Of a stretch of 32,345 nucleotides of DNA, positions 24,066 through 29,902 are shown in pieces (position 1 is the stretch's first letter; the number at the start of each line of letters is the position of its first letter). Where the stretch lies: contig JARHZY010000144.1 of assembly GCA_029264655.1 (NCBI GenBank), positions 1 through 32,345 of the forward strand. The letters run 5' to 3'. This stretch comes from Helicobacter sp. Its GTDB lineage: Bacteria > Campylobacterota > Campylobacteria > Campylobacterales > Helicobacteraceae. The translations under genes were made by a program, and so were the position numbers. The notes under the pieces were generated by a model. It made no database searches. It was not told where the DNA came from and worked only from the letters and a program-made list of their open reading frames with translations.

Positions 24066-25244
24066 TTATTTCATTTGTGCGGCAACTTCTTCAGCGAAGT
24101 TATCTACTTTTTTCTCAATACCCTCACCAAGCTCAAAATTGACAAAAGAAACCACTTGAATATTATCGTGCAATTCTTGACTTTTCTCATTAATTACTTG
24201 CGTAATTGTTTTTTTATCATCAAGTGCATATAATTGTGCAAGCAATGTTAATCTTTGGTCTAAAAGGGTATTATCAAGAATAAAACGTTCTAATTGTCCG
24301 GGAATAATTTTATCCCAAATGTTTTCTGGTTTTCCCTCTGCTTTTAAGGTCGCACGCAATTCTTCCTCTTTCGCATGTAATACAGATTCAGTAAGCTCTC
24401 CACGACTTACATAAGCTGGGATACGATGGAGTGGCTTTTTGAGACGCGCAAGTTCTTCATTTTCTTTTTCAAGTTCTGCAACAATTGCTACTCGTTCTTT
24501 TGCTATAAAATCTTTGTCAAGCTCTGCATAACTTAAAAACTTTGGTTTCATGGAAGCAATATGCATACTTAATAATTGAGCAAATTCATGTAATTTAGGA
24601 GTATTTGCCTCATTATCGCAACTTAAAAGCGTGATTGCTCCAACCTTTTTATTATGATGTAAATACCCATTAATAATTTGGTTTGGCTTACATGTGATGG
24701 TGGTAACTCTGCGAATGACAATATTTTCACCTATAACAGCAATTTTTTGTTTAAGATAATCACCAAAAGATTCTCCATTAATACTTAATTCCATTAGAGA
24801 ATCTGTTGTATTTAATGAACGCTTAAATGCTAAATCAAGAATGTTTGTTACAATATCTTGAAAATCCTCATTTTTTGCTACAAAATCTGTTTCAGAATTT
24901 ACCTCAACCAAAGTTGCTTTTCTAAAATCATCAGCAATTTTCAAAGCAATAACGCCTTCTGCTGCTATTCTATCAGCTTTTTTGGCTGCTTTGCTTAATC
25001 CTTTTTTACGCAAATATTCCATTGCTTCTTCTATATTACCCTTGCATTCCTTTAATGCATTTTTGCATTCCATGATACCCGCATCAGTTTTTTTGCGGAG
25101 TTCTGCTACAACTTTTGCAGAAATCTCTTGTGCTTGCCCTTTGATTTCATTTGCTAAATCTTTCACCTCATGTTTGAGTTCCCCGCCAACTTTGCTTAGT
25201 GCATCTTTTGCATTTTGTAATGCTTCTTTTGTTTCATCACGCAT
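24066..25244 (-). CDS. tsf: Translation elongation factor Ts with N-terminal extension
   Basis: [64 protein letters not shown]-like; ATG 25244 is 6 nt after AAGGAG inside rpsB and overlaps the rpsB stop (ATGCGTGA). Confidence 0.95.
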
Positions 25245-26049
25245 TTTCATCTCCTTGTGCTTGAATTTCTTTTGCTATTTCTTCTTGTATTTCCGCCATT
25301 ACAGCTTCTTTTTCATTTTCTGTTATAGGTGCAGCTTCTGTATTCTCTGCCTGTTCTTCACCCTCTACACCATGCATTTCCCGACCTTCTGTAATCGCAT
25401 CACTAATTTCTTTACAAAAGAGTTGGATAGAGCGGATTGCATCATCGTTTCCCGGAATTGGATAATCAATTAAATCTGGATCGCAGTTTGTATCAAGTGG
25501 AGCAACTACTGGAATCCCAAGCCTGCGTGCCTCACCAACAGCAATTTTTTCTTTTAAAGCATCAACAACAAAAAGCATATCAGGAGCTTTTTTGAGATGG
25601 CGTATGCCACCAAGATATTTGTTAAGCTTTTCTTTTTTACGCATAAGCATAAGTTTTTCTTTTTTTGTAAGTAAATCAATTTGCCCGCTTGCCTCCATCT
25701 CTTCGATGATTTCAAGCTTACGCACTGATTTTTTAATAGTGCTAAAATTTGTTAGCATACCACCAAGCCAACGATAATTAACATAAGGTGCATTGACTTT
25801 TTCTGCATATTCTTTTAGTGTATCGCTTTCTTGTTTTTTTGTCCCGACAAACATAATAACTTTGCCTTCACTTGCTGCATCACGCACTATATTATATGTA
25901 TAGCGGAAATAACGTAGTGTTTTTTGTAAGTCAATAATATGGATATTTTTGCGAACACCAAAAATGAATTTTTTCATTTTTGGATTCCAACGTCTTGTTT
26001 GGTGTCCGAAATGCACACCACATTCCAATAAATCTTTCATAGTAACCAT
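25237..26049 (-). CDS. rpsB: 30S ribosomal protein S2 with acidic C-terminal tail
   Basis: [75 protein letters not shown]. Confidence 0.97.
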
Positions 26050-26225
26050 AGCATAAGCTCCTTAAAATTTAATATAAATTTTGTGAATTGGTTTTGCCGC
26101 CATGCCCATTAACTCTTTGCTTATTTATATTGCATTTTTGAATGTTCGTTCCTAAAACAATATATAACAAGGAGCAACCAATTTTTAGGATTGGCATGTG
26201 AGTTTTTCACAAAGCTATAATTATA
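26050..26225 (-). promoter_or_regulatory. Long structured 5' leader and promoter of rpsB-tsf
   Basis: Extended -10 TGTATAAT (minus 26227-26220) about 170 nt upstream of ATG; hairpin CCAAT-CCTAAAA-ATTGG with its loop complementary to downstream TTTTAGG; GCTCCTT complementary to the SD AAGGAGC. Confidence 0.55.
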
Positions 26226-26558
26226 CAATAAAAATGTAATTTTGTGTGCTTTTTAAATTTAATTTTATAATTCAAACATATAAATACATAATTTAGTCAT
26301 ATAGGCAAAGTTAAGATGATGAATTTTGCTTTTTCTATAGTTATTTATCTAAAATCTTTGTATTTCAACATAATAAAATAAGAATAAGCATTGCAAGTAA
26401 GCTAATATAAAATATAATAGACGATGGGTTAGTTGCGTTATATATTTATGATTAATTGTTTATTCTATATTAAATATAGCATTTATGTATTTGCATATGC
26501 TAGAAGTAGATAAAAAATGTAAAAATTAGCAAAATGTTCTAATTTTTTATTTTTACGA

Positions 26559-26605: not shown

Positions 26606-29600
26606 ATGTTTTATATTCAAAGTTCTATTTATGAATTTTTTACACACGAAGATCCTAATTGCATAGTATGTGCTTTGCAGGATTTAGCACATTGTGATAT
26701 TGTCCAAACACAAATCCGCATAAAACAACAAAGCACTAAAGTGATACCGCAACAGACAAATACTAATTATGAGGAATTGCTTGCATTTTGGCAATCACAT
26801 GCCAAAGAGCAGCAAAGCTTAACTACTTTATTAGAATATAGCCAAATACTTCCTTTCCAACAATGTGCTATAAAGAATCAATTTTTAACAAATGTAAAAT
26901 TCCCACAAATTTTTGTTTGTTCAAGCGAGGAAAGTTTGCTTGCCTATCAAGCATTATGTGCCCTTACAACATTACAACATAAGCATAATACACCCAAAGA
27001 GCAACAACTTCCTATTTTGTTGCCAGATATTCGATTAAGTCCTTTTGATAGCACACAAAGCTTTTATGAAGAATTTCATGAGCTTTTTGCAAAATTAGCA
27101 TTATGGTATGAAAATGATTGCCAACAAATACTTATTAGTCCGCCACATACGCTTATGGCATTTATGCCTACTAAAGCATTATTACATAGTTTTTGTGTGC
27201 ATACGAGGCAACATATTGTTGTGAAAGATTTTATAGCAACATTACTGCATTATGGGTATGAGCATGTGGAGATTGTTGAAATGCAAGGTGAATTTTCACA
27301 TCGCGGTGATATTATTGATATTTTTATCCCAAACTTCGAATTTCCTGTGCGTATTAGTCTTTTTGATACAGAGATTGAAGAGATTATCTTTTTCAATCAT
27401 GAAACACAACTAAGTAGAGATGAAGCACTAGAGAGCTTAAAAATCTATCCAGCAATGTTTAGCCTAAATGCAGAACAACATATATATTTGGAATCTTGTA
27501 TTGCAAAGCTACAAAATACTATAGAACATAATATTAATGCATTTGGATTTTGGTTTTTAAAGGAGATTGGAGGTATTAATTTATTAGCTACATATAGTCA
27601 TATTTTTACACCAAAAGCACTAAGCGAATATCTTGTAAATCTTGAGTTTGTGATGCCAGAGATTTTGCCATCTATAACACATAAATTTGCAGTCTTGCAA
27701 GATGCAATGCATTTTAAAGATATTGAACCATTAAAAGCAAACCAACTCCACAATATGCTAAAGCTTAATAGTAATAAAGCAATCACAATTTTAAGCCCTA
27801 CAAATGCCATGCTTAAAAGCTATAATCTTGAATCCTTTGGTATAAAAACTAGAAATATTATTACGCCATTTTATTTACATATCATTGCCGAACATACATT
27901 ATTCATTAGTTTGCAAAAACCACAAAGCACACGCAAGAGACGCGTGAAATTAGAGTTAGATACTCTAAAAGTTGGTGAATATGTGGTGCATAATGAATAT
28001 GGGGTTGGAATCTTTGAATCCATAAAGCAAGTAAGTATTATGGGTGGGCTTAAAGACTTTATTAGCATTGTGTATGCAAATGATGATAGATTACTTTTGC
28101 CTGTTGAAAATCTCAATATGATTGAAAAATATAGTGCATATGATTCTATTGCAAAGATAGATAAGCTAGGTAAGTCAAGCTTCTTGCGATTAAAAGATTC
28201 TATCAAAGAAAAGCTATTTGCTATTGCCAATGAGATTATTCGCTTGCAAGCACAAAGAGAATTGAATAAAGGGGTTATGTTATCAATTGACACACCAGAA
28301 CAAATAGCAGCGATGAGTGCTTTTGAAGCAAAACGAGGCTTTATGCTTACAGATGATCAGAATCTTGCTATAAAGGAAAGTTTAAAAGATTTAAAAAGTG
28401 GCATCATTATGGATAGATTGCTTAATGGTGATGTGGGATTTGGCAAAACAGAAGTGGCAATGAGTCTTTGTTTTGCAAGTGCATTGAATGGTTATAATAG
28501 CATTGTGCTTGTGCCTACAACTTTACTTTGTAGCCAGCATTTTGAAAGTTTTAGCGAACGTATGCATAATACGAAATTGCCAAATGGACAATATTTATAT
28601 GTTACTAAAATAGATAGATTTACAACACTTACACAAAAAAAGACGATACAACAAAATCTCAAAGATTCTATACAAGTAATTATTGGCACGCACGCACTTT
28701 TTAATCTTACAATAGAGAATCTTGGACTTATGGTTATTGATGAAGAGCATAAATTTGGAGTAAAACAAAAAGAGCTTTTAAAGCAAAAAAGTCTTACAAC
28801 ACATGTCCTTTCTATGTCAGCGACACCTATTCCACGCACATTAAATATGGCATATTCTAAGCTTAAAGCTATTAGTGAATTGAAAACCCCACCATTTTTT
28901 AAACAAGAAGGAAAAACCTTTGTCAAGATAAAACAAGATTCGCTTATTAAAGAAGTTATTTTACGAGAATTGAGACGCGGTGGGCAAATCTTTTATATAT
29001 TTAACAATATTGCAAAAATAAGCACAATAAAAAATTATTTACTTGATTTATTGCCACAACTTAGAATCTTAATATTGCATTCCCAAGTGAATCCCAAAGA
29101 TACAGAAAAAGGCATGCTTGCATTTTTACAGAAGGAATATGACCTTTTGTTATGCACTTCAATTGTAGAATCAGGTATTCACCTGCCCAATGCAAACACA
29201 ATTATAATTGATGAAGCTCATAATTTTGGTATTGCTGATTTACACCAATTAAGAGGACGTGTTGGTAGGGGCAAACATGTTGGCTTTTGCTATCTTTTAA
29301 CACATGAAAATATTACACAGGAAGCAGCAAAAAGACTACTCTCTTTAGAAAAAAATTCTTACCTTGGCAGTGGAGCTGCATTAGCCTATCATGATCTAGA
29401 GATTCGTGGTGGTGGTAATTTGCTTGGTGAAGCCCAAAGTGGGCATATTAAGCAGGTTGGTTTTGGCATGTATGTGCGTATGCTTGAGGATACATTGCAA
29501 AGTCTTTTGCAAAGTGAGCAATATGAGCAAAAAGTAGATATTAAGCTTTCAGTATCAGCTTTTTTAAATGAAAGTTTGGTGGCTAGCGAACGCATGAGGC

Positions 29601-29902
29601 TTGATTTATACCGCCGTTTATCACAAGTAAAAAATGAATTTGAGGTGCGTGAAATTGAAGGGGAAATTGAACAACGTTTTGGGAAGCTTGATAAATATAG
29701 TTTGCAATTTTTAGAAATTATTATTATTAAAACACTTGCCTTAAAACTTGGTATCAAGTCAATTACAAATATAGGATACAATATTAATCTAATAGGGCAT
29801 GATGATACACGCATTACTTTACAATCTCCAACAAAAGATGATGATGATATATTACTAACAATTACAACAAAATTAAAAACACTTTTGCAAGTAGTAAATT
29901 AA
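26606..29902 (+). CDS. mfd: Transcription-repair coupling factor
   Basis: GEYVVHNEYGVGIFE RNAP-interaction-type domain; helicase motifs GDVGFGKTEVA, DEEHKFGVKQKE, SATPIPRTLNMA, QLRGRVGRG. Confidence 0.96.
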   Translation: MFYIQSSIYEFFTHEDPNCIVCALQDLAHCDIVQTQIRIKQQSTKVIPQQTNTNYEELLAFWQSHAKEQQSLTTLLEYSQILPFQQCAIKNQFLTNVKFPQIFVCSSEESLLAYQALCALTTLQHKHNTPKEQQLPILLPDIRLSPFDSTQSFYEEFHELFAKLALWYENDCQQILISPPHTLMAFMPTKALLHSFCVHTRQHIVVKDFIATLLHYGYEHVEIVEMQGEFSHRGDIIDIFIPNFEFPVRISLFDTEIEEIIFFNHETQLSRDEALESLKIYPAMFSLNAEQHIYLESCIAKLQNTIEHNINAFGFWFLKEIGGINLLATYSHIFTPKALSEYLVNLEFVMPEILPSITHKFAVLQDAMHFKDIEPLKANQLHNMLKLNSNKAITILSPTNAMLKSYNLESFGIKTRNIITPFYLHIIAEHTLFISLQKPQSTRKRRVKLELDTLKVGEYVVHNEYGVGIFESIKQVSIMGGLKDFISIVYANDDRLLLPVENLNMIEKYSAYDSIAKIDKLGKSSFLRLKDSIKEKLFAIANEIIRLQAQRELNKGVMLSIDTPEQIAAMSAFEAKRGFMLTDDQNLAIKESLKDLKSGIIMDRLLNGDVGFGKTEVAMSLCFASALNGYNSIVLVPTTLLCSQHFESFSERMHNTKLPNGQYLYVTKIDRFTTLTQKKTIQQNLKDSIQVIIGTHALFNLTIENLGLMVIDEEHKFGVKQKELLKQKSLTTHVLSMSATPIPRTLNMAYSKLKAISELKTPPFFKQEGKTFVKIKQDSLIKEVILRELRRGGQIFYIFNNIAKISTIKNYLLDLLPQLRILILHSQVNPKDTEKGMLAFLQKEYDLLLCTSIVESGIHLPNANTIIIDEAHNFGIADLHQLRGRVGRGKHVGFCYLLTHENITQEAAKRLLSLEKNSYLGSGAALAYHDLEIRGGGNLLGEAQSGHIKQVGFGMYVRMLEDTLQSLLQSEQYEQKVDIKLSVSAFLNESLVASERMRLDLYRRLSQVKNEFEVREIEGEIEQRFGKLDKYSLQFLEIIIIKTLALKLGIKSITNIGYNINLIGHDDTRITLQSPTKDDDDILLTITTKLKTLLQVVN

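What the first reader, a model, noticed from the sequence alone, without database searches (positions are those of the whole stretch)
26050..26225. rpsB-tsf leader: candidate pseudoknot coupled to an anti-Shine-Dalgarno
Seen on the minus strand: 5'-CCAAT(CCTAAAA)ATTGG-TTGCTCCTTGTTATATATTG-TTTTAGG...TTAAGGAGCTTATGCT-ATG. The 7-nt hairpin loop CCTAAAA (26189-26183) is perfectly complementary to TTTTAGG (26157-26151), giving a possible H-type pseudoknot. The linker between them carries GCTCCTT (26175-26169), the exact complement of the rpsB SD AAGGAGC (26063-26057). A strong extended -10 implies a leader of about 160 nt. Established knowledge: ribosomal protein S2 represses rpsB-tsf through the leader in gammaproteobacteria. 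Inference: this may be an independent epsilonproteobacterial S2 autoregulatory or switch element in which pseudoknot folding controls anti-SD availability.
Basis: partly seen in the sequence, partly recalled or inferred. Interest (0 to 1): 0.68.

Follow-up and report, generated by a model that had tools for sequence, protein, structure and literature searches.

The report
S2-operon RNA leader hiding ribosome site

Summary
The leader (26213-26050, minus strand) belongs to the known rpsB motif (Rfam t44; Meyer et al. 2009), the S2 autorepression element. A covariance model built without any Helicobacter finds it at E=6e-8. The full model hits 257 of 298 Campylobacterota genomes, while Rfam's t44 reaches its cut-off in 0 of 61. 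P1, P3 and a different pseudoknot (AUUGGUU 26182-26176 with AACCAAU 26093-26087) covary strongly.

These two register-adjacent pairs are the top two of 195 leader x SD column pairs under a tree-aware null, and they replicate in held-out leaders. Gastric Helicobacter fuse pseudoknot and SD into one 9-bp helix. Proposed mechanism: S2 stabilises the pseudoknot, which clamps the SD. Caveats: no within-genus signal; the window itself has an A.A mismatch next to UCCU:AGGA; function is inferred.

The parts
26220..26227 (-). extended -10 promoter TGTATAAT; predicted transcript start about 26213
   Evidence: sequence; TATAAT-like box at the same distance in genus relatives; TSS not measured
26193..26198 (-). 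P1 5' strand CAUGCC
   Evidence: 96% of cells paired, all 6 pairs with two-sided changes; tree-aware p<=3e-4
26101..26106 (-). P1 3' strand GGCAUG
   Evidence: as P1 5' strand
26187..26190 (-). invariant UCCU, proposed anti-SD (extended complementarity 26190-26180)
   Evidence: top two covarying column pairs with SD flank; window 10/11 match with one A.A mismatch
26059..26062 (-). AGGA of rpsB SD, partner of UCCU (extended 26069-26059)
26176..26182 (-). pseudoknot 5' strand AUUGGUU
   Evidence: species-swap test z 5.9; tree-aware p 3e-4 to 0.004
26087..26093 (-). pseudoknot 3' strand AACCAAU
   Evidence: as pseudoknot 5' strand
26112..26175 (-).
   Evidence: 89% of cells paired, 5 of 5 pairs with two-sided changes; tree-aware p 3e-4 for the varying pairs
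26206..26213 (-). UUUGUGAA, can pair with UUCACAAA 26087-26080 (optional outer stem, genus only) or locally with UCACA
   Evidence: sequence and genus comparison, MFE local hairpin; not tested for covariation
25237..26049 (-). rpsB CDS (ribosomal protein S2, 270 aa)
   Evidence: ORF; 78-92% identical to genus relatives
24066..25250 (-). tsf CDS (EF-Ts), overlaps rpsB by 14 nt
   Evidence: ORF; identity from established knowledge of rpsB-tsf operons

Best explanation
The leader is a Campylobacterota member of the rpsB motif, the cis-acting RNA by which ribosomal protein S2 represses rpsB-tsf translation (membership about 0.95; S2 repression inferred from E. coli, about 0.85). Shown by covariation: P1, P3 and a pseudoknot between the strand after P2 (J2-3) and the strand after P1. 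Also supported by covariation: the invariant UCCU between P1 and the pseudoknot strand pairs with the rpsB Shine-Dalgarno (UCCUNN:NNAGGA), nested outside the pseudoknot stem and able to stack on it (about 0.6). Inferred mechanism: without free S2, UCCU is held in P2 by the GG of the pseudoknot strand, so the SD is open. S2, probably with S1, stabilises the pseudoknot, takes the GG away, frees UCCU to pair with the SD, and blocks initiation.
For: t44 aligns to the window leader (15.6 bits) and to other Helicobacter leaders (28-32 bits), in place and orientation. A model without Helicobacter finds the window leader at 6.2e-8, its only match in the window. The full model finds 257/298 Campylobacterota genomes, nearly always one match each, and 210 of 214 fetched matches lie just upstream of rpsB. 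It also finds the E. coli rpsB leader. P1/P3 covariation. Pseudoknot. UCCUNN:NNAGGA: tree-aware p 3e-4 and 0.003 for the first flank pair and 3e-4 for the second, over 193 leaders; in 89 held-out leaders p 3e-4/0.004 and 0.03; third and fourth flank positions null. The two pairs are the top two of 195 column pairs and survive dropping any of three large clades. Both flank pairs form in 83/193 leaders against 45 +/- 5 by permutation. P2 competitor pair N1 with pseudoknot strand: p 0.001-0.002. Gastric Helicobacter fuse pseudoknot and SD: CCTTAAAGT/ACTTTAAGG. S2 autorepression in E. coli, with unclear mechanism: PMC10931766.
Against: Within-genus permutation shows no SD/anti-SD covariation (N1 z 0.2, N2 z -2.4), so the signal comes from between-genus differences. 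The window has an A.A mismatch right after UCCU:AGGA, and 23/193 leaders pair at neither flank position. The E. coli leader shows no such anti-SD by inspection, and S2 control there does not involve the RBS. P2 beyond CC/GG is poorly supported. The free energy of the window leader is unremarkable (z -1.5). No expression or binding data exist.
Confidence: 0.62

Rival explanations
1. Plain rpsB motif: S2 binds P1/P3/pseudoknot as in E. coli and represses without direct SD pairing. UCCU is conserved for S2 recognition or for P2, and its match to the SD is a by-product of both being fixed sequences.
For: UCCU:AGGA is expected whenever both are invariant; no within-genus covariation; E. coli manages without the RBS in the operator; N1 also covaries with the pseudoknot strand as P2.
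Against: Two flanking positions on each side covary in register under a tree-aware null, with held-out replication, and top an all-pairs scan. The fused pseudoknot-SD helix in gastric Helicobacter.
Confidence: 0.3
2. One reading: hairpin CCAAU/AUUGG with loop CCUAAAA pseudoknotted to UUUUAGG, gating the anti-SD GCUCCUU.
For: All strings present; GCUCCUU has under 0.5% chance in shuffles.
Against: Loop pairing has no two-sided changes and exists only in the window; the 7-nt anti-SD is absent in all 13 genus relatives; GCUC is the P3 arm; the CCAAU hairpin uses the pseudoknot strand and covaries only marginally.
Confidence: 0.03
3. The structure does not respond to S2 but serves another purpose (mRNA stability, S1 loading, EF-Ts sensing).
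For: No functional data in this phylum were found (searches gave none).
Against: Same motif before the same gene in E. coli, where S2 represses.
Confidence: 0.05

Closest known systems
rpsB motif (Meyer et al. 2009, PMC2704228)
   Same: Upstream of rpsB; P1, P2, P3; J2-3 pseudoknots with the strand after P1; P2 very short; the paper lists 'a few Epsilon-' members
   Different: Here near-universal in Campylobacterota; conserved UCCU whose flanks covary with the SD, which the paper's text does not mention
Rfam RF00127 t44 / E. coli rpsB leader (S2 autorepression, Aseev et al. 2008 as cited in PMC10931766)
   Same: CACACACG...CGUGGAGGC...AAC core, same gene, same strand order; mutual weak matches between models; GGGGU/AACCCC pseudoknot readable in E. 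coli
   Different: Below Rfam cut-off in all 61 Campylobacterota sampled; E. coli shows no UCCU anti-SD
SD-sequestering pseudoknot r-protein operators (e.g. S15/rpsO in E. coli; known to me, not tested here)
   Same: Pseudoknot in the leader affects ribosome access
   Different: Different protein, fold and mechanism; S15 traps the ribosome rather than using a leader anti-SD

Membership tests
rpsB motif / S2 leader | Located directly upstream of rpsB on the same strand | tested here: met
   window 26202-26083 before rpsB 26049; 210/214 fetched matches
rpsB motif / S2 leader | P1 stem enclosing P2/P3 | tested here: met
   6 pairs, all with two-sided changes
rpsB motif / S2 leader | P3 stem of variable length | tested here: met
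   5 pairs, all with two-sided changes
rpsB motif / S2 leader | P2, short or absent | tested here: inconclusive
   CC/GG nearly always possible; third pair kept in 72/193; N1-K5_5 covaries p 0.001-0.002
rpsB motif / S2 leader | J2-3 pseudoknot with the 3' extension after P1 | tested here: met
rpsB motif / S2 leader | Reaches Rfam RF00127 gathering score (44 bits) | tested here: not met
   15.6 bits in the window; 0 of 61 genomes over the cut-off. This is a sensitivity limit of a model narrower than the Meyer motif, not a missing structural feature
rpsB motif / S2 leader | Binds S2 and represses rpsB-tsf | not testable with these tools
   needs experiment
   only in the window among 14 genus members

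The most novel reading that the evidence does not exclude
In Campylobacterota the S2 operator is an SD-clamping switch: the pseudoknot and a UCCUNN anti-SD form one extended helix with the rpsB Shine-Dalgarno, while the competing P2 (UCCU with the pseudoknot strand) frees it. S2 controls its operon by choosing between them, a mechanism not described for any S2 leader in the papers I could read.
Probability: 0.5. Interest if true: 0.7.

Novelty: new variant of a known kind. Interest (0 to 1): 0.55.

Why it matters
How S2 represses its own operon is described as unclear even in E. coli, because the ribosome-binding site lies outside the known operator (PMC10931766). A phylum whose version pairs a fixed UCCU with the SD gives a concrete, testable route from S2 binding to translation block. 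It also adds a whole phylum that the current Rfam model misses, including human pathogens whose rpsB-tsf control is unstudied as far as I could find.

Tried and rejected
Rfam at gathering threshold: nothing in the window. Swap tests of the CCU-loop half against the tail and of the P2/pseudoknot strand against the next 15 nt: null, as they should be. Within-genus permutation of SD/anti-SD flanks: no signal, kept as evidence against. Third and fourth SD flank positions and off-register pairs: null or at most p about 0.04; in the all-pairs scan the next best of 195 pairs have z 2.5 or less. Attempt to sample Gammaproteobacteria through a named locus as centre was not accepted, so the absence of the anti-SD outside Campylobacterota rests on one E. 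coli leader. Several primary papers on S2 (Aseev 2008, Fu 2013, Mustoe 2019) are not held; I rely on the review and Meyer 2009.

Full report
WHAT IS THERE. The window is from a Helicobacter-group genome: 14 genus members (the window included) carry S2 proteins 78-92% identical to it, and the nearest named record is H. trogontum at 90%. On the minus strand, rpsB (26049-25237) is followed by tsf (25250-24066); mfd-like ORF 26606-29902 diverges (the mfd and tsf names rest on established knowledge of the encoded sequences, not on a search). All strings in the finding are exactly at the stated coordinates.

A hairpin with a 7-mer loop complement arises in 7.3% of dinucleotide shuffles of this leader, and GCTCCTT in 0.17%. 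Mapped on 36 aligned leaders, CCUAAAA/UUUUAGG shows no two-sided change and exists only in the window. CCAAU/AUUGG is marginal. In the 13 other genus members no 7-nt SD complement exists. GCUC of the 'anti-SD' is the 5' arm of a covarying hairpin, P3, with GAGU 26115-26112.

WHAT IT IS. Leaders of 80+ rpsB loci line up on CACA-P1-AAUCCU-...-GGUU-P3-...-P1'-GGAGG-AAACC. P1 and P3: 93% of cells paired, all 11 pairs with two-sided changes, covariation score 0.85 against 0.36 +/- 0.02 shuffled and at most 0.26 for slid partners. The crossing helix GGUU/AACC covaries: a species-swap test gives 5.43 bp native against 4.59 +/- 0.14, 0 of 20,000 permutations, and reversed-tail and downstream controls are null. 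This is the architecture of the rpsB motif of Meyer et al. 2009 (P1, short P2, P3, J2-3 pseudoknot with the strand after P1), which that paper reports in 'a few Epsilon-' (PMC2704228). Rfam t44, the gammaproteobacterial S2 leader, hits the window at 15.6 bits and other Helicobacter at 28-32 bits, below its 44-bit cut-off.

INDEPENDENCE AND SPREAD. Model R2, built with no Helicobacter sequence, finds 26204-26083 at E 6.2e-8 as its only match in the window. Model R1 finds 257 of 298 Campylobacterota genomes, 53 of 58 genera, nearly always once, while RF00127 passes its cut-off in 0 of 61. 210 of 214 fetched matches lie just before an rpsB start. R1 also scores the E. coli K-12 leader at 23 bits in the right place.

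AN ANTI-SD THAT IS CONSERVED. The invariant UCCU right after P1 complements the AGGA of the SD. That alone means little, since both are fixed. I therefore tested the flanks: UCCU-N1-N2 against M2-M1-AGGA, with positions chosen without reference to pairing. In 83 leaders N1 and N2 exceed permutation (z 4.1, 5.8) and N3 does not. With 188 leaders this holds for free and within-family permutation but not within genus. To account for descent I simulated columns on rpsB trees (script re-used in 64). Over 193 unique leaders: N1-M1 p 3e-4/0.003, N2-M2 p 3e-4; N3, N4 null. In 89 leaders not used for discovery: 3e-4/0.004 and 0.03 (the strings had been printed before the tree test, so this is a replication on new sequences rather than a blind one). 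P1, P3 and pseudoknot columns served as positive controls. In a scan of 195 leader x SD column pairs the two highest are exactly N1-M1 and N2-M2. Dropping each of three large clades keeps both below 0.05. Types seen include TCCTTG/CAAGGA, TCCTAA/TTAGGA, TCCTTT/AAAGGA, TTCTTC/GAAGGA and one TCCTG/CAGGA. In gastric Helicobacter the SD abuts the pseudoknot and the two merge: CCTTAAAGT/ACTTTAAGG. In the window, 26190-26180 pairs 10 of 11 with 26069-26059 with an A.A mismatch after UCCU:AGGA; 17 of 1500 shuffles do as well.

HOW IT LIKELY WORKS. UCCU can pair with the GG of the pseudoknot strand (P2; N1 covaries there too, p 0.001-0.002) or with the SD. The pseudoknot uses that GG. So pseudoknot and SD clamp go together, and P2 goes with an open SD. 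S2 repression of rpsB-tsf is established in E. coli, needs S1, and its mechanism is described as unclear because the RBS is outside the operator (PMC10931766). Inference: S2 favours the pseudoknot and so the SD clamp. Shown: structure and covariation. Inferred: S2 binding, direction of the switch, effect on translation.

LIMITS. No within-genus covariation; 23 of 193 leaders pair at neither flank; one E. coli leader without an evident anti-SD is the only outgroup I read. The tree null is a simple F81 simulation. The primary S2 papers were not available, so prior description of an SD pairing in them cannot be excluded.

Noticed in passing
L069, L080, L089 (150 nt before rpsB); family f7: Sulfurimonas-type leaders keep P1 and a crossing 6-bp helix (GTCGGT/ACCGAC, ACCGGT/ACCGGT, ATCAGT/ACTGAT) but have lost AAUCCU and GGAGG: a divergent rpsB-motif variant missed by the model.
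   Followed up: partly
L026 (9 bp shown); L027, L028, L227, L228 (same strings); L091 with one G.U: Gastric Helicobacter leaders fuse the pseudoknot and the SD into one continuous 9-bp helix.
   Followed up: partly
window 25250-24066: EF-Ts has an N-terminal extension of roughly 38 residues, rich in K and E, ahead of its conserved start; rpsB and tsf overlap by 14 nt.
   Followed up: no
window 26213-26206 and 26087-26080: UUUGUGAA at the predicted transcript start can pair with UUCACAAA after the pseudoknot (genus only) or locally with UCACA; a similar UGUG/ACACA stretch precedes P1 in E. coli.
   Followed up: partly
L045, L060, L066, L087: Sulfurovum-type leaders share an extra hairpin-like AAAGACTACGGTCT element between the pseudoknot and the SD.
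   Followed up: no
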